64,000 bases of DNA from Batrachochytrium dendrobatidis JAM81 (Eukaryota > Chytridiomycota > Chytridiomycetes > Rhizophydiales), in the NCBI RefSeq assembly GCF_000203795.2, contig NW_006281113.1, forward strand, positions 202,735-266,734. The letters are read 5' to 3'. Numbering within the stretch: position 1 is the stretch's first letter; each line of letters opens with the position of its first letter. Shown one piece after another: positions 1,060 through 16,000 of the stretch. A program made the translations under genes and the position numbers. Under the pieces are notes generated by a model. The model was given only the letters and a program-made list of their open reading frames with translations. It was not told where the DNA came from and made no database searches.

Positions 1060-4000
1060 ATGAGTTTTTTACAAGCACAACTTTCTTCAGAACAGTTGGT
1101 AATACAGGAGCCACATCACAATCTAATGCCATCAACTGAATTACTAGCTACATCAATTCATCAGTCTACATTGTCGAATGCAGCACTCTGTACAGCTGAA
1201 AGCGTCGATGCTACTATAGATATGAATGACTCTGGATATCAAGGAAGTCCCTTGCGAGCAGCGATCAAGATGAGGGATTTGTCCATTACTCCTGCAACTG
1301 TAACCATTGACAAGGAAATATATGCTGCTGCAGAAGCAGCTGCAATGCTTGCATCGTTAGGTCATATTGCATCTCCACACAAGCAATCAGCATCCAAGAT
1401 ATTCGAAGCAGACTATTGTTCCGCATCATTACATCTGAATCCGTCCAAACCGCAGCAACAGGACTGGATGGTAGCCGCAGCTAAAGAGTCTTCAGCAATC
1501 ACTAGTTATTCCGTTACAGCTACCACTCCATCTACGCAAGCTGTCGATAGTTTGGCTTTATTGCATAGAACTGCGTCCACTAATTCAATTAATTTGAAGC
1601 ACAGTAATTCTGTAGTATCTGATCTTGCCAAGCAGCATTCACCACATCTACTTGATTATGAGCAAGGTCTAATGCAAAGCCGTGCCATGGTAGAACGAAC
1701 AAACCAAGCACTTCCCTTATTCGGACAAGCCGAATCAGATACCTCCAACTCAACCCATGCTGTCACAAAAAAATTGAGTGGGTTGGCAGATAAGCAGCAA
1801 TCTCAGCCTATAACTTATGTGTGTACGTTTCCAGCCTGTAATCGGATATTCTACAAACCATACAATCTCAAATCTCATACTCTGGTTCATACAGGTAAAT
1901 TTTCAACAGTGCTTTGTATCTTTAAATGATTTCATTGATCCAATACAAAGCATTCAGTCAGTACTCTTGCATTTGGGTAGTCCGTGCCATTCATCCTTTT
2001 ACCATCTAGACTACAATCTCACCTTCACCTACTTTAAACGAGGGCTGTGTGAATACCCTGCATAATATGTGCACTTGAGCCATTTACTGAGCTGAAGTTG
2101 GATTGACCAATCTTGCATCTTTTCACTCAATACTGACTTCCATACGGCTTAATTTCGGGACGCTTACTATGAGATTGTGCTTGGTTGATGTTTTCTATTC
2201 CCTCGAGTTTCCTTCAAATTCTGCTTTTACATCTAATCCTTATGTCACTTGTGACATGCGCTTTATTGCAAAAACGGTCAGGCTCTCCATATATTTTCAA
2301 AGCACACTATTTTTCAGGAATTCAATGCATGGTCTAAAACCCGTAGCATTCATATTCAAAAGAATAGATGTGTCGAGACTTGTTCTGTCCAAACATGCAT
2401 TGTCAGTGTTATAGAATTAAGGGCTGTGATAAGGGTCAGCAAAGTCATGTGGTGTGGTTCAAGCAAACTTTCTTGAATGCATTGCTAAAATAGCGGGTCT
2501 GATCGAGGTTGCACCATTCTATTGAGTAGAAAGGTTAGCTAGACCGTTTTGCAGCCGTATTCATGTAAAATGGAACACTTGTTCATTGTGCAATGACTGT
2601 CTTGGAATACACGATGATCAATCATTGTATTCCTACTAGATATTGACTTTTTAAAGCAATGTTCATCATATGATGTACAGTCAAACTATAGTTTTAAACT
2701 GGGATTGTTTATTTGGCAGTCATTCATTGCAATCTAGATATTTGGGTTTAATATCAACCCTGACACATTCCTCCTTGCACTCTAAAATCTCGACTACATT
2801 CGCGCTCTAGTTCAATACAACTGTTGTTTCCATGCCAGTCATCCAATGTTTGGTCATAGAGAAGGAGAGTTGGAGATTGAAGAAACTTGGGATGAATTAA
2901 ATCAGATGCAGACATCTGTTCAATTGTTTATACAATAGTAAGCACAAGGAAAACCACAAGGTTTACAATACTGTCTAGTAAGACTAGTACCAATTCACAA
3001 ATGTCTAATCTTTTGGCACTCTTATTTAATGGTTTATTTTACGTGAATACGGCAGTCATTACAGTCATTTGCCATGATCTAAACCATTCTCTATGTTTTG
3101 CGGTCATGTAAATTGCCCATGTGGCACTTGTCCATTTACAACACCCAATTGATCGAGTGCCAGCTACAATCATTGACAGTCTTTAAATCTGTTGGTAATT
3201 GAATGTTTAATGTGCTTTCAATATGGCATAAATGATGCTACTTTGGACAGACTACCATCCCTGTCACAACCATTATTCTAAATGCCATAGCGTAGTAAAA
3301 TGCAATGGATTTTTGATGTGCTTGTTTGTTGACCATCAACTAGCGGTAATCAAAGCATACACAAAGCCTTTATTTCCGATCCCTTGCATTTTACCAAATC
3401 TTTGATTACGTATTGCAGTAAATGTTGGGCTTGAAGGGCGGTATCAAGCTTGATTTAGTCCATTTACCCTTATTTCTGAATTGCATTCAATTAGTTCTCA
3501 ATACTCTGGATCGTATTTTTATTGACCCAGCTTGATCTGCTTGGATAATGCAACGAAAATTAAACTATTGGCTTTGGTTTGTTGTGTATTTTATGCAAAG
3601 TATTATTGATAGTCCCGCCATCAACAAGCACTAATGCTTGTTGATGGCAATGTCAAAATATACCCTTTGAATCTATTGCCAAACTGCCGTTATTTGGCAT
3701 TTCTAAGCCATCTAATCTTTTTCGACACGTTTTTATTCAATATCCGACATTATTTGGGCTTTACTAACAGCTGCTTTTTACAATACTTTGCACTTTAAAT
3801 TCACGCACATCGCTGGAACGGATTATATTAAAAACCAATGACGCCATGGCGTTTCTGCGGCATGTGATACCAATTCATGTCTGTTACCCTTTCTAACATC
3901 TGTATAAGGTGTCCGCAACCATGAATGTAGTATCTGTCAAGCCGCATTCGTTCGCCGCCATGACCTCCTACGACATAGTCGTATTCTCCACAGAAATATC

Positions 4001-7000
4001 CGTCCTGAATCCAATGATAGACAGGAGATGGACAAGATGTGTGATGCTGCTGTCATGGACAGCAGTAATAGTCTTAATATCAGTCAAGCCTCTAATATTG
4101 ACAATACTATAGTAGACAATCTAGATCAAAGTGTGAATAAGAGCTCTGAAACGCTCAAGGAAGGCCCAGATCTTGGCACTCGAGGCAAAAGAAAGAGCAC
4201 TACACTATCTAAACGAATACGTAACAAATGTACCAAGACAAATGCAGCCAAAGATGACCAGATACAGCTGAATGTAGAATTACTTGGTCTTCATCCAGCT
4301 GCAACTGTACAAATGCCAGCTGCTCTCTCGATCAACACTAAAACTAAAATGAGTGATAAGATTGAAGAGTTGGAAGCAATGCAAGCTGACACATTGGTAG
4401 TGCAGAGCTCTCAATCGCCACATCTGACTGCTTCTAATGTGGTGGACAGGTATCCACATAAACGGCAGCCTCAAACTCCTTGGTATTCTTCTACTGACAA
4501 GTATACATTGGATGCCAGCCAGCAGCAACGTAGTGTACATGGCGATGCTGAAGCGTTTTATTCAATACCAGCTGAATCCCAACACATACCACTCGTACAA
4601 GACTCATTTCCGTTGAAAGACTCTTTGCGAATCTCATCCATTGTTGACCATGTACTAGATGGTGACACGAAACAGTATTTGTTATCACAGTCACCCCCAC
4701 AAGCCCAATTTGAACGGGATCCAAAACATCCTGAACAGCTTTATTTGCTTGCAAATAGTGCTTTTCGTGGGGTGAATTGTGTTAATCAGCATGACTCGTG
4801 TTCTCTAGCATCACAGTCGAATGCATCAGTGATGGAGCATAGTCATGGCTACAAAAAAATTGAACATACAACCCATGGCTCCAGGGATCTGTGTCAAGAC
4901 AGATCTGAGCACCAGAAACTGTGTTTTCGTCAGCAAGAGTATACCAACTACAACGCTTTGGAAAATAGCCCTGAAAATCATTTTATCAGGGATGACAGTA
5001 GCAAGGACAGCATGATTCATTCTACTGGTCCCAGTTCCAACAAAATAGAGTCTCAAGAGAACCATGTCATTTCATTAACATCCAATTCAGCGAATCAATC
5101 CAAATGGAATGATCCAATCGATAGTCATAATGCTCAGCCAACTCAGCATTTGGAATGGGAACAGAGGTGTAATGTAGACGCATTTCAAAGCGATTACCCA
5201 GTCATTTGTAGTCAGTCATACGGGTGCCAATTGAATGTGCCAAAGCCGCATAACCTGGTTATGCAATCGATTTGTCGAGAACAGTCTCGATCTTTACAGG
5301 CATTGTCCCAAGTAAAGCACTGGCAGTCATGTTTCCAAAAACGCGAATTTAGCCACCAGAATGGATTGCATCATCAAAAGCTTCAAAAAGCAAATCAGCA
5401 GACGCAAAAAGCATTGCTAGACTACCATCATAGATCCAATAGTTTTTCTCCATATAATTTACAATGGGAATATCCGCAGCTTGAACACCAACAGAAATTT
5501 CATGAGCAACAGACACAGCACTGTCAAATTGAGCTTAGCCTTAACTCAGACCAAGCACCGGCTACGGTTGCATTGGTAACTTGCAAGCAAACACTTTTAC
5601 CCACACTTATTACACAGCAACAAAACCAACAGTTTATCTATGCCGGCTCGCCACCACAACACAAGATTGATGATAACAATTTGGTATGTGACAACCCCTC
5701 AGTACCCAATGCGCAAAAACAGCATACTAGTATTGTTGATACACATTCTATTGCTCCGACTAAAGCATTCCAGCACATTCAATCTCGAGAACTTGTAAAG
5801 ACCCGCGTTCAAAGTATTTCGCCTCTCCACATTTCTTTGCCCAATCCAAAAACTACACCATTTAATGCTTTAAAGACTGGCCTTGTTCGCCGCGCTGAGC
5901 CCCAATCTCCGCCAAGATTTACTAACGATTCTAAATCTATTTCTTGCGTTCCTATTCTACGACTCACCTTACCCTTTACTGCTAATTTAGATACATTGGC
6001 ATCTACCGAAATTGGCAATACCTTTCCTGATTGCACTGATACTCTATCCTGTTTTCCTAAAGCCTTCAAGGTTTCTTTAGACACTGCTTACCCTGCCAAA
6101 ACGCCTGAAATCATGTCAACAACTGCAGGTATATACCATTTTCTAAACGATTGTTTTTCAATTGGACCTTCAATCTATCCAGTAGATAATGATCTACTTT
6201 ATTTATCCTTTCAAAGTTTAAATATTAAATATACTTTACCATTATTACTTGACTGAATGTTTAGAAATGAGCACTCCATTAGCAGTTGCAAATGGCTACA
6301 CCGAACTTCAACTTCGTTCCTCTCTTCCTAGCATCAGCTCGCTTTTACTACCATTTACCGAATCAGACCAAACTCAACAGCCAATGCAACCACCTATCAA
6401 ACCATCAACACTGCTTCCTATTACGCATCGCGACCTCTCCACAACCCGCCATCATCATACTTCTGAACCAGCCTTGAACATCATTGCGGCCAATACTATT
6501 TTTCCGCCATCAATACCTTCCCCTCAATTGGTCGCAGCTTCCAACAGCGACAATGTTTTTGTTTCAGAACCAAATCAATCTTCATTTATACCTTCATCTC
6601 CAAACTCATATATATGCCTGCGCAACTGGTTTTTACGTAAACAAGATGTCGATCCAATGCGCGCAGATGCATATGGTGGTGCATCGATTTGGGTTGCTTT
6701 GGCAGGATATTTGGCCAATTCAACCGACACTGCCCAAAAAGATTCGTTGTGGACAACTTCACATATTGTTTCGTGTATCGACGAGTCCAGGGTATGCACT
6801 TTTAATGGAGAAGTATATCGTATTATTGGCGAGATGGATATTCAACAAACTCTAGCTCAAGGATTTCCACTGCATATTTGCGAGGCTTTCAAGAATGGAT
6901 TCCCACAAAATTGGCAAAGTCTATTGACTTCTCTAGTCAAAACCAACGAGATGCAAATATCCACTCAAGATCAATCAAGTAGACCTGCATCTCTGACTAT

Positions 7001-8828
7001 TGGCGCAATTGACATGAACCAATCTGATCATTCTACTCGACGACAATCAAGTTCAAGTATTTCTGCTGCTCACAAGTCAAGCAAATCGGAAAACGGAAAT
7101 TTACATCAAGCCATTGAAAAATCCTCCACTCAGCCACCTCTGGCACACTTTCATTCACAAACACAATCAGATAATATCTCCATGACACACATGAGCACCA
7201 TCATACCACCTACAGTGATTCTATCTAATGCACCCGATTCAACACTTCAAGAACTCAGCGTATCCAACATCATCCACACTGGTGAACCACAACCACACTC
7301 TTCACAATTTCTCGATGTAAAACCAATTCAAATACCAGCTGGGTCTTCACGGAATGAAAACGAGATAACATGTGCACGATCATGGAGCAAGAGCAGCAAT
7401 GACAGTAATATGGCTGTTGCCGCAAAAAGAAGCACCAAAGGTACATCTCGACATCGCACTACTCCAGGCGCCATCACAACTTCTACAGGATCATCTCAAT
7501 CTGCAACAACCGGACCATTCAGGTGCCAGCACGAAGGATGCGGTAAAGTATTCAATCGTGTTTACAAATTGAAATCGCATCAAGCGGTGCATGAGGGGAA
7601 ACAGTACTCATGTCCATTCTGTAGTCTCCCCTTTGCACGTCGACATGATCTATATCGTCATGCAAGAAGTATTCACTCTCAAAACCGCAAATTTCACTGT
7701 CGAGACTGTTTTTCTGGATACGAAAAGTACGAGCAATACCTTCGTCATCTCACCCTATCCAAACATGATCGAAGACCCATCACAGATGAGATTCGCCACA
7801 AATTCGAACTAGAAACTCGACGAATTGAATTGATGAAACGATTGAGGAATTTTGACGATGAAGATGTTTTGGCCATGTCGGCTTTGAGGGTGCATTCATC
7901 ACAAAGTTTGCCTACTTCACCTATTACTCTGCAGTCTGATGCACACACATATATCAACAGCAGAGTAGGACTCAACACAAGTTTGCCTGAGCATCAGCAA
8001 TACTATCATTCTGCTGTGCAGTCGCCTGTATCAAGCGATGTAACAAACGCGAGTGGGATCAACAGTCATTTGTCTGTTGATGATACGGGTGGGCCGTCAA
8101 GCAAACACATGGTTGCTGGCCTACCGTATACAAGCACCACCATGTCTTTGGGATCTCCTCCGTCAACCAACATGCCTTGGTCACCTGTAATACGTCCACA
8201 AAAAATGTTGCAATCGCCAAGAACACCTGCTGGTATGTTTCTTCCACCTATTCGTGGATACAGCCAGTCGAGTAGTGGAGGTGGACATGACGAGTTGTGC
8301 TTATCACCTCACCCTCTGTCCACTTACAGTGGAAATGGCAGCATGCATTCATATACCGACGCGGCAGAATTGCAGCAGTCTTTTCCAAATGTTCACACTG
8401 ACACATATGAGAACTGGTCGGTTCAAATTGGTGTTAAAAGTGATGGTCTAGACCCAAGTGCAACGCATTGTCTACGACCATGGATGTTGATCTGTGGCCA
8501 TGTGCACGATGCATTCACAGGGAAATGGGTTTGGAAAACCTCTGCCGTGGTAGTAGCTCGACATACATCCACACTAGTTCAAACCTCTGACAGAATAGTA
8601 TGTAAACTTGGTAAACCCAACCTCCACTCACTCCGAGACAATCTTGGATCAGATCTATTCGACTATGGTATACCAATGAATTGGATTGAAGTGATTTCAG
8701 CAAGAACAAATGTCTTGTCTACTGCTCATCCAGAAATTGAAGAAGATGAGATGGGTACGAAACGATGTCGTGCTACATCTGGTGTCGACGAGACGTTTTG
8801 TGGTACTCCGAAATCGACTCGAGTTTAA
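1060..8828 (+). CDS. Large C2H2 zinc-finger protein with two SANTA-like domains
   Basis: The model has three exons: 1060-1894, 3909-6128 and 6265-8828, giving 1872 aa. The first splice falls inside a zinc-finger linker and restores a Crz1/Ace2-like C2H2 pair (about 253-310) whose second finger ends FVRRHDLLRH. The second intron (6129-6264) has a good donor and a TTTAG acceptor, and both junctions keep frame. A second C2H2 pair with an extra finger lies at about 1437-1520. A SANTA domain lies at about 1133-1240: the NWFLRKQ start, the TSHIV core and the GFPLHICEAFKNGFPQNW end fit the family, which is otherwise known from the CENP-A loading factors KNL2 and Mis18BP1. A second, more divergent SANTA-like unit lies at about 1754-1832. 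The rest is Gln/His/Ser-rich and probably disordered. It is likely a nuclear DNA- or chromatin-binding protein. Two separate genes (break near 6256) is the main alternative. Confidence 0.72.
1895..3908 (+). other. 2014-bp intron of the zinc-finger/SANTA gene
   Basis: The donor is ACAG followed by GTAAAT and the acceptor is ATAAG before GTGTCC. Joining the exons makes one Gly codon and recreates the standard linker between two C2H2 fingers (HTG-V-R-NHEC). At about 2 kb it is far longer than the other introns here, and part of the length is a 500-bp inverted-repeat element at 2554-3053. I see no further exon inside, but small ones could be missed. Confidence 0.7.
2554..3053. mobile_element. TIR element copy A (MITE-like), inside an intron
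   Basis: The left end reads GCCGTATTCATGTAAAATGG and the right end is its near-exact inverse (TTTTACGTGAATACGGC). The interior shares blocks with copy B, including GTTGGAGATTGA at 2869 and 20976. It has no coding capacity, so it is probably a non-autonomous DNA transposon. I could not define a target-site duplication by eye. Confidence 0.75.
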
Positions 8829-8941: not shown

Positions 8942-11900
8942 TTATCGATGGTATCCGCTATTGCCATGGTAACGGTCGTGGTACCCACTGTTTGTGCCCC
9001 GAGAGTGTTCACCTCGACCCCTTCCACCATTATACCGATACCTTCCCCCTCTACCTCGATATTCATTCCGATCACCACGATGTCCACCCGTATGGTGATA
9101 TGTGGAAGTATACCCCTGAACCGCATCCCCTACATCGGCATGCCGATCCGACCCATGCAACTGTGGTTGTAAATAAGTATACTCACCACTAGGAGTAGAA
9201 TGAGACGAAACAGGATGATTTCCAACCAACGAAGCCAACATCTGACTTACATCTCCATTACCAGTGGTATCGTTTTGTGATGGAAGATGTAATCCAGCTT
9301 GAGTCATCAAGTTGTGTAGAGTTTGAACATCTTGATAGGTTTGATTCATTCCGCCTACACCTGCAAGGGAAGGCAATAGAGTGGACAAGGCTGATATATC
9401 CAATCGTGCTAGAGGTTGTTGTGGTATAGATGAGGATGTAGATGGATAGGATTGAGTTTGTGAAGTGGTGGATGATGCAAGGGATGGTAATGCAGATAAT
9501 GTTGGCAAGAGATTGGATGTCAGGGTTGAGGTTGTGGGTTTAGATATGGATGTGAGTAATCCAGTCAAAGATGAATGTACTTGTGGCATGGCTCCAGTAG
9601 ATAGACTTGCCAAAGTTGGCAATACCATTACAGCTGCAGTAGTGACTGATGGAATGTCTGTAGAGATCTTTGGTTGAGTTGACAGTTCTGTAGCAGATTG
9701 TCCATTACGACGTTTAAGAGATCCATCCTTGTCATTAGCAACAGTTGTACTAGCAGTTGTACTAGTAGTTGTACTAGTAGTCACACCAACAGTTCCATTA
9801 ACAGTTGTACTAGTAGTTCCAACACTCAGTGTTGGTTTGGTTGATATTAAACCACCTAGATTACGAGCAACAACAAAGTCTCTTGCTAATAGAAGCAGTC
9901 CAAACAGTCGGTCTCTAGTACTGTGAGCATCAATGCGTACATCACCAGGAATAGTAGTTAGTAATGATGGCAGTGGAGTAGATGCCTTTGCAGGCACCAA
10001 GTACATGTCCTTGACTGCTGCCAGATGTTGTCCGATAACTGCACATCGATCCCTTGATGCAAAATAATCAACAAGAGTCTGCAGTCCATCTACTGCTGTT
10101 GGCTGGTCTACATTGCTAGTAGATTTAAACTCAACAACAACCAGCACTCCATTCCCACTTGATGTTCTTCCATGCAAGTAAGACTGCACTCGGTCTATAG
10201 GAATTCGTCCACTGATGTCCATGGTTGTCTCAAGAATTGACATCCAAGTTGCTGCTGGTTGAACCCATTGTCCTCCTACTTGTGTTGCTGAACCAACAAA
10301 CTTGCCCACTTGTGGCATGTGTACCGTTCCTTTCCATACTATTGGAGATGAGTCCTTGTGAGGTTGATTCTGACGATTACCAGCCAAACTCGACACAGTT
10401 GATTTCTTTGATGGTTCATCATCGCTACTTGAAGCAATACTGTCAAAGGGTGAAAGTGGTTGTTCTTCATAGTCACTGCCATATCCTGATGTAACTGCAA
10501 TATTAGTTGTTGCTCGAGGCTTTAGTTTCTTCTCTTCATTGCTGATAATGGGTGTATCTCGTATAGCATTACTGCCATTCATACTAGCAATCAAATCATC
10601 CAACGTATCCGTCTTTTTTTTGCGTTGTAAAGTAATGTTAGTACTAGTTCCACTGGACATCGATACCTGTCCATCTCGATCTACATTAGATATACGTGGA
10701 GTAATGGTTCCATGTTTATCACGACTATCAGTGGATTTTCCCCACTCGCTCACATTCTCTACTAACTGACTGTTTCCTTTGCTAAAATCTCTTACAATTT
10801 GCGGGGTTTCCACTCGAGGTTTGAACGCATTCTTCAAACTCTGTCGTTTGACTCTGTCGGCTGTTTCCTTCATCTCCTCGTTACCAAGCTCATCGGGTGA
10901 CAACCGCACTAATGCGTCTGCATCTAAATACTGCTTTCCTGAAAGCAATATTCGCTTGCGTAGTCTCGTGTTGGTCACATCCATCAGATTGTATCGCAAT
11001 GATCGGAATTTAGCCTTGTACTAAAGTATGCATTAGTATCTGATTCTAAATGTTTTTCAGTTTATCAATCCATAGATACTTACTTGATCACTCACAACCC
11101 TGACTCCATTCTTTAAAATATGAGTGGTGTCAAACAATGCTTGTTCAACCTTTTTTGCCATGCCATTATAATCGTCTAGTTGGATCGAAGCATGCAGAGG
11201 CTCGCCCAGTTCTTCCTTGTGTGTTTTTGCCCATTCGTAAATATCGCGAAATGTGGCAGTAAAATGACTTAGAAACGCAGCTCGAAGCGGATCAATCGAG
11301 GACTGTGATGAGGTGCTGGCAGTATGATCTACTGATTTTGCACGCTTGGGCTCGACACTCAGCTTCGTACGTTTTATTGACTATAGTAAAGTATAGATTT
11401 AGCAAATAGATGGACAAATTTGCACTAGACCATCATGTTTTTTAGATTGACAAGTCAATACAAATAGTACATACGGGTGTTGCTGTCGAAGCGGACATTG
11501 CTAATGGTCGAGAGTCGGATAGACTCTTTCTCTTTTGTTCTTGTGAAACCACGCTGGTATCCATCACTGACTTGACATCATTATGGCTCAATTTATCCTT
11601 TGCTAAATAGAAACACCATTAGGATTCACAGAGCTTTCAAAACGCACTGTATAAAAATGGACTCGACTTACCAGAAATGGAAGGTGTCTGCAGAGTAGAT
11701 TTGAGTTTTTTTTCCTTTTTGGAAAGTTTGGTAGGTTTTGAAGATAAAGGTACATCAGGGCTAGAAGGCAATAGTGAAGTTGTCGAGTTTTGATATTGCA
11801 TTCCATTTGTGATGGATGAATATAAAGCGTTTGAAGGCATGACTGCAGATGGATTGATTGCAGTTATCGGAATGGTGGATGACAATCCATTGGCGTGAGT

Positions 11901-13088: not shown

Positions 13089-16000
13089 TTATTGAAACCG
13101 ACTTTCAAATGGTTCAATGTGCGACCATAACGTGCATTGTAAGTCATCAATCACTACGTTGCACTCTTGAAATACTTGGTAAATACGATCTGCTATCTGC
13201 TGTCGGATATGGTCTTGAGCTGTTTTGTTCATTGGAATGGGTTCACCTTGAATAACACATTCAGATACCTGTTGTGCTGCATACCATTGTATTATAAACG
13301 TGTATAAGCATACGGATTATTCAGATTCATGATTTAATCTTGAATTACTGTTTACCTCGATCAATAACACTCTTGGGTAATCCTGCAACCTGTGCACAAT
13401 GCACACCAAGTGATTGCAAACACTTGCCATGGATAAGCTGATACAAAAAAGTCACTCCAGTCCTACTTGTACCGTTGTAGGTTTCATCCGATTCATCATC
13501 ATGCGTTTCAATGATCCTCATGGTATAATAGTCAATCGTGGCTGTAGGTTTTATCATGCAGTCGTGTCCAGAATACACGCTGGGTATCATGCAATCAAGT
13601 ACTCCATCCATCAACAGTTCTAGTTTCATGTAACACAGTTGCATGTATAAGTCAATCACATTTAAAGTGTAAATCGTGTAGACACTGTACCATGATAATG
13701 CGTGGCAATAAGCACATGCGGACACTCTTGTCCTCGGCTACAAAACGATTGAATCATTGCACACAAAAGTCCAATCCCATCTATCAACATGCATCAGTCA
13801 TTTGTGTAAAAACTCGACTTTTTTGATATGCACTCACCATGACTTATGGTTCCCTTGCCAAATTCATCCACTATGACAAGACTCCTAGGTGATGAGTTGA
13901 CTACTGCATACGACATTTGCTGTAAATCAATCAAAAATGATCCTTTGAGTGCAGATACGCTGTCGTCAGAGTGAATGCGAGTAAAAATACGATCTGTAAG
14001 ACCAATCGTTGAAAACGATGCTGGAACAAAACTACCAATATGGGACATGATGACAATCAAAGCTACTTGCTGAAGATAAACTGACTTTCCTGAAAAATTG
14101 GCTCCAGTAATAAGCATCATTTTGGCATTGGACAATGAAGCATCTGCATGACATTGGGTACTGTGGGTAGCAGTCGTGTCTTGGTGAGAACATCCAATAT
14201 GAGTGTCATTCTCAATAAATGCATCAATGCACAGTTCTTTCAAAGGGTGTCTAATCAGTCCCATCATATAAATCAATGCATGTAGATTCAAATGAATGCA
14301 ACATCTAGACATAGCATGTCCAATTCAAACTACCTTCCACCAATAATGTGCAGACCGCTTTCATGTGTCATGGTTGGCCTCGTGTATTTATATCGAACTG
14401 CAGCTTCAGTAAGCGAAAGTATGCTGTATATTCAAAACACATTTAGTGCCAGAATGCAGTCTACTTGATCAACACCCATCTTACCATTCAAGCTCGGTGA
14501 GAGTCCTGGATGCTTGTAAAAAATACTCACCATGATCCAACATAACCTCTCGTAATTGTTGTACAACCTCTAGTTCACGATCAACAATCATAGAATGAAT
14601 ATCACCCAAGGTGTCGTCAAGTTCATACATCATGTCACTCTTATAGTATGCCATCGTGGCTGTAGAAAATTGAAATAACAGACCATCAATGGCATAGTCG
14701 TGATTAGATTGGCATTTTAGAATAGCAGAATTTGAAATTGCTACAAGATATCCAAGCTGGGGAAAGTATACAATATTTAGAGACTTGGAAAGGGTTTGAG
14801 GAACGGTTTGAGCAACTGTTGTCGCAACAGTGGATAGAATTGTCTCGAGATTGCTATACGTTTTTTTGAAAGAATCTAAATCCTCATCAACATTTTGTTT
14901 GACAACTAATCGTGCTTCCTCTTTTGACATATCAAAATCAATCTTTAAATATATATGGTATGCTTGTTAATGTGATCCAAACAGTAATTCCATTACAAAT
15001 AACCAGTGTTAGTGCAATATACTTGCCACATCGTTGATATGCTGAGAGAGTTGCTGAAATAGACTAGGCGGAACATCATCTAAAATCTACATCATTCATT
15101 TTAACAGTGACCAAATGAATTTGATAGATTCAATAAATAGAGTAGTGATCATATACCTTGATGACAATTTTTAATTGAGATGGGTGACAATGATCCCGAA
15201 AAAATGTGCGTATGGTGAGAGAATAAAACATAAACTGATCCAACACGCTACTTAGCCATATGCAGTCTAGTTGTTTTCATAAAATCAGTGTACTAATTCA
15301 CCTGATGGAGTGCTTGCCAATCTGCTAGTGATAGTTTTGAATTCATAGCCCTAAGTAGTTTCTATGTAGTAGTTGTATCGTGGATTGAATAATGAATATC
15401 TCGAGGCTCGATACAAACAAAATCAATACATACGGGAATATTTCGAAGCCGCCTCAACGAGTCTTGCAGCATTTTGCGAGAAGATAAATCTTGTTGAATA
15501 AACCATTCAATTGAATCATGTCTTTCCTTGATAGTATCTAAATCAAGCAGAGGTCGCATAATCCACTGTTTCAATAGCATTTTTCCAGCCTGGGTTTGGG
15601 AAAAATTCAAGATTCCTAAACATGCACATAGCAATATACAGTTACTGATTTATCAATTCAATTTACATGAAGCATAATGCATTATTACCAAATAGGGAAA
15701 GACTTTCTCGTTTAGCTTGTCGAAATATATTTGGATGGCCTTGTTCTTGAAAAATATGTAACGATCTACAGATATTCATGATCAGATGAAACCTACAACC
15801 CATTCAAGCGATTTAAACCAAATGCCTACGTCATTGCATTCACAGACAATTGCATTGTATTTTCCAGTGAAATGTTTTCAACAGTTTGAATTGTAATGTG
15901 GTCACCATAGTCAAACGTTCTAGTCAAATTAGTTTTTGCAAGATAGGTTAACAGTGCACCAGCAGTACCGACCATCTCGCGATGATCCAACACAACGATG

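What the first reader, a model, noticed from the sequence alone, without database searches (positions are those of the whole stretch)
1060..8828. C2H2 zinc fingers combined with two SANTA-like domains in one 1872-aa protein
Exon 3 holds a good SANTA domain (start NWFLRKQ, core TSHIV, end GFP...GFP-x-NW) and a second divergent copy near the C-terminus, separated by C2H2 fingers; exons 1-2 hold another C2H2 pair. SANTA is known from the CENP-A loading factors KNL2 and Mis18BP1. A DNA-reading zinc-finger protein with this domain would be a natural candidate for a centromere or chromatin factor in an early-diverging fungus. I do not know of this architecture being described. The function is inference.
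Basis: partly seen in the sequence, partly recalled or inferred. Interest (0 to 1): 0.75.

Follow-up and report, generated by a model that had tools for sequence, protein, structure and literature searches.

The report
Zinc-finger protein with SANTA domain
A chytrid fungus carries, besides its ordinary centromere-loading protein KNL2, a second gene whose long protein joins zinc fingers, which usually read DNA, to one clear and one worn-looking copy of KNL2's hallmark SANTA domain, an unusual pairing whose job is still unknown.

Summary
Exons 1060-1894, 3909-6128 and 6265-8828 splice in frame into 1872 aa. SANTA copy 1 is decisive: Pfam PF09133 72 bits, cut-off 21, similar to the solved human Mis18BP1 SANTA (E 4e-5). 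Copy 2 is likely but unproven: 16 bits, below cut-off; a full-length alignment to the genome's KNL2 SANTA beats 1270 decoy tiles, but BLASTP and a PDB search found nothing and AlphaFold failed. Four clear C2H2 fingers and a degenerate fifth form two modules with near-identical contact residues. Exon 3 alone holds SANTA, fingers and copy 2, so the pairing survives even if exons 1-2 were another gene. New context: the genome, evidently Batrachochytrium dendrobatidis, has a separate canonical KNL2 with SANTA and a CENPC-like motif, plus Scm3 and CENP-C. The window protein lacks that motif, so it is probably not the main CENP-A loader. Best guess: a DNA-reading SANTA partner of KNL2, resembling plant beta-KNL2. 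A transcription factor that borrowed SANTA is nearly as likely. No relative was found in one protein database, which excluded full-length ones.

The parts
1060..1894 (+). Exon 1: low-complexity-looking N-terminal region and C2H2 finger 1
   Evidence: donor GTAAAT
1816..1890 (+). C2H2 finger 1; contact residues K,Y,N,S at -1,2,3,6
1895..3908 (+). Intron 1, 2014 bp, GT..AG; holds a repeat with terminal inverted repeats
3909..6128 (+). Exon 2: C2H2 finger 2 and a long linker
3920..3991 (+). C2H2 finger 2; contact residues R,H,D,R
6129..6264 (+). Intron 2, 136 bp, GT..AG, 25% GC
6265..8828 (+). Exon 3: SANTA copy 1, C2H2 module 2, SANTA-like copy 2, stop
6606..6941 (+). SANTA copy 1 (residues 1133-1244)
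   Evidence: Pfam PF09133 72 bits, E 5.8e-20; PDB 9r6h E 4e-5; coordinates
7518..7592 (+). C2H2 finger 3; contact residues R,Y,K,S
7605..7676 (+). C2H2 finger 4; contact residues R,H,D,R
7692..7766 (+). Degenerate C2H2-like finger 5 (C-x2-C-x12-H-x5-H)
   Evidence: read by eye from the sequence; largely inside the stretch shared with finger proteins L016 and L017
8394..8711 (+). SANTA-like copy 2 (residues 1729-1834), below the family cut-off
   Evidence: Pfam 16 bits against cut-off 21; in-register alignment to the genome's KNL2 SANTA; coordinates

Best explanation
It is one nuclear chromatin protein with two DNA-reading C2H2 modules and one or two SANTA modules. The C2H2 modules, with near-identical contact residues, dock it on particular DNA sites (inferred). 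The SANTA domains pair with the SANTA domain of the genome's canonical KNL2, or with each other, and so tie DNA sites to the CENP-A loading machinery (inferred from plant alpha/beta-KNL2). It would thus work like plant beta-KNL2, a second SANTA protein without a CENPC motif that makes its own DNA contact, but with sequence-reading fingers instead of loose DNA binding. Shown: the gene frame, SANTA copy 1, the fingers by pattern, and the separate KNL2. Not shown: expression, localisation, binding, or any role in CENP-A loading.
For: SANTA copy 1 is as good a SANTA domain as that of the genome's own KNL2 (72 against 63 bits by hmmscan; 64.6 against 66.3 in the genome scan). PF09133 rings at 2 places in the 23.5-Mb genome, this gene and KNL2; that scan also missed copy 2, so worn copies elsewhere are not excluded. 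The KNL2 gene ends in a CENPC-like motif whose three best solved matches are chicken KNL2 7y7i and two CENP-C chains (weak E 0.087-0.15). Scm3 (76.1 bits) and a CENP-C_C piece (31.5 bits, cut-off 29) show that the CENP-A route exists here. Plant beta-KNL2 lacks the CENPC motif, needs its SANTA domain for centromere targeting and binds centromeric DNA in vitro; SANTA-containing fragments of alpha- and beta-KNL2 interact in yeast two-hybrid, with BiFC and co-IP support in planta (PMC13294675, passages). Alpha-KNL2 needs DNA-binding regions for anchoring (PMC11879092, passages).
Against: No CENPC-like motif and no SANT/Myb domain in the window protein. Its fingers belong to a large finger family of the same genome; the 17 fetched relatives (covering 19 of 24 non-self match rows) show no detectable SANTA, as expected of transcription factors. 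In plants the DNA binding that anchors alpha-KNL2 is sequence-independent, so sequence-reading fingers are not an obvious substitute. Full-length alpha- and beta-KNL2 did not interact in yeast two-hybrid, and a longer beta fragment did not either. Arabidopsis KNL2 without SANTA still reaches centromeres (PMC6888302, passage). Nothing here shows centromere location.
Confidence: 0.4

Rival explanations
1. It is a C2H2 transcription factor that captured SANTA as a generic chromatin or dimerisation module and acts at promoters, not centromeres.
For: The finger pairs match a finger family in this genome (24 non-self match rows at E 0.01 or less); in the 17 fetched stretches the similarity is in the fingers only, apart from one stray match at E 0.79. 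The contact residues R,H,D,R and Y,(N/K),S resemble fungal Swi5/Ace2/Crz1 fingers (recalled, not tested). The protein is 12.8% S, 7.5% T and 7.2% Q, a make-up common in transcription factors (recalled).
Against: SANTA copy 1 keeps the KNL2-type signature and scores about as well as the genome's own KNL2; no other SANTA was detected in the genome (a scan that missed copy 2).
Confidence: 0.37
2. Exons 1-2 and exon 3 are two genes: a two-finger protein, and an 853-aa SANTA / C2H2 / SANTA-like protein starting at ATG 6267.
For: Exon 3 begins two bases before an ATG, so it could stand alone; the exon-2 frame is open to 6256. No transcripts were available.
Against: Intron 2 is 136 bp, AT-rich, GT..AG and in frame, short for a terminator plus promoter. 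A protein search with length window 469-1493 aa returned no exon-3-only protein although the database holds at least one B. dendrobatidis protein; this is weak. The SANTA-plus-C2H2 pairing stands in either case.
Confidence: 0.1
3. Copy 2 is not a SANTA domain; the likeness is chance.
For: Below the Pfam cut-off. No SANTA chain among the 3 PDB sequences found at E 10 or less. BLASTP against the KNL2 protein finds no SANTA alignment (best E 7.5). hhalign probability 3.4%. Both AlphaFold models below pLDDT 46. The best local match to copy 1 is out of register, and with that attractor removed 8 of 2000 shuffles score as high (z 3.7). With a two-sequence profile 3 of 5000 shuffles reached its score.
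Against: Full-length in-register Smith-Waterman alignment to KNL2 SANTA, 71.5, z 7.1; 1 of 2000 shuffles and 0 of 1270 decoy tiles as high; 0 of 1000 in an earlier run. SANTA is the only Pfam family it hits at E 10 or less.
Confidence: 0.25

Closest known systems
KNL2 / M18BP1 (Mis18BP1), with SANTA domain PF09133
   Same: SANTA copy 1 is a full member of the domain family and resembles the solved human Mis18BP1 SANTA.
   Different: No CENPC-like motif, no SANT/Myb domain, C2H2 fingers instead, probable second SANTA copy; the genome has a separate canonical KNL2.
Plant beta-KNL2 (PMC13294675, passages)
   Same: A second SANTA protein without the CENPC motif beside a SANTA-plus-CENPC-k paralogue; DNA contact (shown for the plant, inferred here).
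   Different: Beta-KNL2 is described with SANTA as its only domain and has no zinc fingers in the passages seen; the chytrid case would be an independent origin (inference).
Fungal C2H2 transcription factors of the Swi5/Ace2/Crz1 kind (recalled)
   Same: Two-finger modules with ..Y.LKSH / RRHDL.RH helices; a similar family in this genome.
   Different: No SANTA domain was detected in the 17 fetched finger stretches.

Membership tests
SANTA domain (PF09133) | score above the curated cut-off (21 bits), copy 1 | tested here: met
   72 bits, profile 1-91 of 92
SANTA domain (PF09133) | score above the curated cut-off (21 bits), copy 2 | tested here: not met
   16 bits, profile 36-91 of 92
KNL2/M18BP1 | SANTA domain | tested here: met
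KNL2/M18BP1 | CENPC-like motif (found in chytrid KNL2 according to PMC9210943, passage; not universal, absent from plant beta-KNL2) | tested here: not met
   two patterns give no match in the window protein; both find the motif in P0004
KNL2/M18BP1 | SANT/Myb domain (vertebrates and some others) | tested here: not met
   no Myb model; not universal in the family
KNL2/M18BP1 | localises to centromeres and is needed for CENP-A loading | not testable with these tools
   needs cell biology
C2H2 zinc-finger proteins | C2H2 spacing with hydrophobic core positions, in tandem | tested here: met
   four fingers by pattern; solved multi-finger matches
C2H2 zinc-finger proteins | Pfam curated cut-off for zf-C2H2 | tested here: not met
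   16.2, 18.3 and 24.4 bits against 25.2, exon by exon; the spliced protein was not scanned as a whole
Swi5/Ace2/Crz1 transcription factors | orthology by tree with named fungal proteins | not tested
   named fungal sequences were not fetched; the resemblance is recalled

The most novel reading that the evidence does not exclude
Chytrids have a DNA-sequence-reading branch of the CENP-A loading route: a zinc-finger SANTA protein that docks on particular centromere DNA and hands these sites to KNL2, so that centromere position is partly written in DNA in an early-diverging fungus.
Probability: 0.2. Interest if true: 0.85.

Novelty: new variant of a known kind. Interest (0 to 1): 0.52.

Why it matters
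SANTA is the hallmark of KNL2/Mis18BP1, and how it helps find centromeres is unsettled. A protein that joins it to fingers that can read sequence, beside an ordinary KNL2, gives a natural test of whether SANTA works as a partner-binding module, and whether a chytrid uses DNA sequence to steer CENP-A loading.

Tried and rejected
Protein database: three searches. The exon-3 protein (residues 100-853) gave only 2 finger proteins at E 0.001 or less out of 5896 candidates. SANTA copy 1 alone gave 33 candidates and none at E 0.01. The KNL2 SANTA gave 1 of 146 candidates at E 0.1, a B. dendrobatidis protein. By the tool's length rule only proteins of 469-1493 aa or 358-1137 aa were eligible (my arithmetic), so a full-length 1872-aa relative could not appear; the negative is weak. 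The genome collections held are prokaryotic and this genome has no relatives held, so other chytrids could not be searched.

Structure: copy 2 alone, pLDDT 37.1; copy 2 with copy 1, pLDDT 45.2. Both too poor, so no fold search was run.

Internal duplication of a finger-SANTA unit: considered and not supported. The N-terminal finger pair scores higher against five pairs of other genes (best L016, 58% identity) than against the C-terminal pair (43%).

A BLASTP hit between the SANTA copies (E 2e-4) was dropped, because it pairs CLRNWFL with CLRPWML out of register. Alignments A2 and A3 were dropped because copy 2 is misaligned in them.

Mis18 (PF03226): nothing rang, including in the controls, so inconclusive. 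CENP-A: not identified among 10 histone match rows, of which I read 8 loci (the two left out have the same scores as two that were read); inconclusive, since genes are intron-split.

Full report
The gene. The + strand frame 1012-1929 holds ATG 1060. The frames 3908-6256 and 6222-8828 follow. Joining 1060-1894, 3909-6128 and 6265-8828 gives one open frame of 1872 aa with GT..AG introns of 2014 and 136 bp. The first join rebuilds the linker between fingers 1 and 2, and exon 2 has no ATG before finger 2. GC by codon position follows the same order (1>2>3) in all three exons once phase is allowed for. The one uncertain point is exon 3, which begins two bases before an ATG (6267) and could stand alone; even then it holds SANTA copy 1, the second C2H2 module and copy 2. 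No transcripts were available.

SANTA copy 1 (6606-6941). Pfam PF09133 72 bits, cut-off 21, E 5.8e-20, profile positions 1-91 of 92. By sequence it matches the solved human Mis18BP1 SANTA, 9r6h (E 4e-5; the next of 5 rows is an unrelated designed protein at 0.0048). A profile of the three chytrid sequences finds the same chain at E 1e-12 and no other at E 1 or less; that profile includes copy 2, so it does not test copy 2.

SANTA-like copy 2 (8394-8711). On its own, 16 bits and E 0.017, cut-off 21; in a 153-aa piece, 14.6 bits and E 0.046. As a control, 9 other tiles of the protein (two of them overlapping) and the reversed copy 2 gave no SANTA hit, but one tile hit an unrelated family at E 0.017, so the library-wide value alone proves little. 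Against the KNL2 SANTA of the same genome a Smith-Waterman alignment runs in register from NW to GxPxxW: score 71.5, z 7.1, 1 of 2000 shuffles and 0 of 1270 decoy tiles as high, best decoy 52. Results against: BLASTP with the KNL2 protein finds no SANTA alignment (best E 7.5); the PDB search lists 3 chains at E 10 or less, none of them SANTA; against copy 1 the best local match is out of register, and without the misleading CLR segment 8 of 2000 shuffles do as well; with a two-sequence profile 3 of 5000 shuffles (4721 received a score) reached its 9.1 bits, and hhalign gave 3.4%; AlphaFold was no help. I rate copy 2 as a diverged SANTA at about 75%.

C2H2 fingers. Fingers lie at 1816-1890 and 3920-3991, then 7518-7592 and 7605-7676, and a degenerate C-x2-C-x12-H-x5-H unit at 7692-7766 was seen by eye. 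Contact residues (-1,2,3,6) are K-Y-N-S / R-H-D-R in the first module and R-Y-K-S / R-H-D-R in the second. Both modules should therefore read similar sites (inference). That this is the Swi5/Ace2/Crz1 type is recalled. The genome has many such pairs: 26 match rows at E 0.01 or less, two of them this gene itself (the tool calls such counts lower bounds). Of the 24 others, 19 rows lie in the 17 stretches I fetched and 5 were not fetched. A two-sequence SANTA profile over all frames of 40 aa or more found nothing in these stretches better than E 1.8, and Pfam found no SANTA in the 9 of these proteins that I scanned. Both tests could miss a copy as worn as copy 2. Similarity of the window protein to these stretches is confined to the fingers, apart from one stray match at E 0.79.

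The other SANTA gene. PF09133 rings at two places in the 23.49-Mb, 33-contig genome: here (64.6 bits) and C1:1743771 (66.3 bits); copy 2 did not ring. The second gene is 99% identical, over the searched SANTA region, to hypothetical protein BDV3_001113 of Batrachochytrium dendrobatidis, 957 aa, which names the organism. Its C-terminal TRSGRTVVKPLAYWKSER matches chicken KNL2 (7y7i) and two CENP-C chains best; the single E-values are weak (0.087-0.15), but these are the top three of 8 rows. PMC9210943 (passages) states that CENPC-k is found in KNL2 of chytrid fungi. So I take this gene as the canonical KNL2. Scm3 and a CENP-C_C match in three pieces (31.5 bits for the best, cut-off 29) are also present. 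The window protein has no such motif under two patterns that find it in P0004.

How it may work. In Arabidopsis, beta-KNL2 has SANTA but no CENPC-k, needs SANTA and its C-terminus to reach centromeres, and binds centromeric DNA in vitro (PMC13294675, passages). SANTA-containing fragments of alpha- and beta-KNL2 interact in yeast two-hybrid, and BiFC and co-IP are reported in planta; the full-length pair and a longer beta fragment did not interact in yeast. Alpha-KNL2 needs DNA-binding regions beside CENPC-k, of a sequence-independent kind (PMC11879092, passages), and reaches centromeres without SANTA (PMC6888302, passage). By analogy the chytrid protein would be a second SANTA protein whose DNA contact is supplied by fingers. 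This fits the anatomy, but nothing here places it at centromeres. The rival, a transcription factor with borrowed SANTA, is almost as likely and is favoured by the finger family and the S/T/Q-rich make-up.

Print status. Searches for 'SANTA domain' with 'zinc finger' and 'fungi', with 'chytrid', with 'fungal', and with 'C2H2' listed 1, 1, 2 and 3 papers, six different ones. I read passages of five: PMC9210943, PMC3264562, PMC6888302, PMC13072016 and PMC7340788 (the last is about SANT_A of Swi3, another domain). PMC4844285 was seen in the listing only. None of what I saw describes this pairing. Subscription papers and domain-architecture databases were not searched, so it may already be listed there.

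Verdict. A real-looking, unusual gene, a new variant of SANTA protein; the function is open.

Noticed in passing
window 2554-3053; L003 3418-3931: A 500-bp element with 18-bp terminal inverted repeats (94% complementary) lies in intron 1 of this gene; an element with the same left end and a variant right end (3 mismatches) lies in intron 1 of the genome's KNL2 gene. Related pieces occur at tens of places (47 match rows for the intron, itself included, 40 of 144 candidates scored), so sharing by the two SANTA genes is probably chance. It looks like a MITE.
   Followed up: partly
L003 4702-4827: The KNL2 gene appears to use a GC..AG intron inside its SANTA domain (read by eye); the database protein P0004 has the same join.
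   Followed up: partly
window 8945-11020 (-): The neighbouring frame on the other strand holds a SPOC domain (71.9 bits) and the end of a TFIIS central domain (41.5 bits), as in Bye1/PHF3/DIDO-type proteins (name recalled).
   Followed up: no
window 13797-14324 (-): MutS domain V (109.5 bits), profile 1-99 of 188 only, so probably part of an intron-split MutS-family gene.
   Followed up: no
L035 340-1902 (-): A 520-aa frame with an Scm3 (HJURP-type CENP-A chaperone) domain, 76.1 bits.
   Followed up: partly
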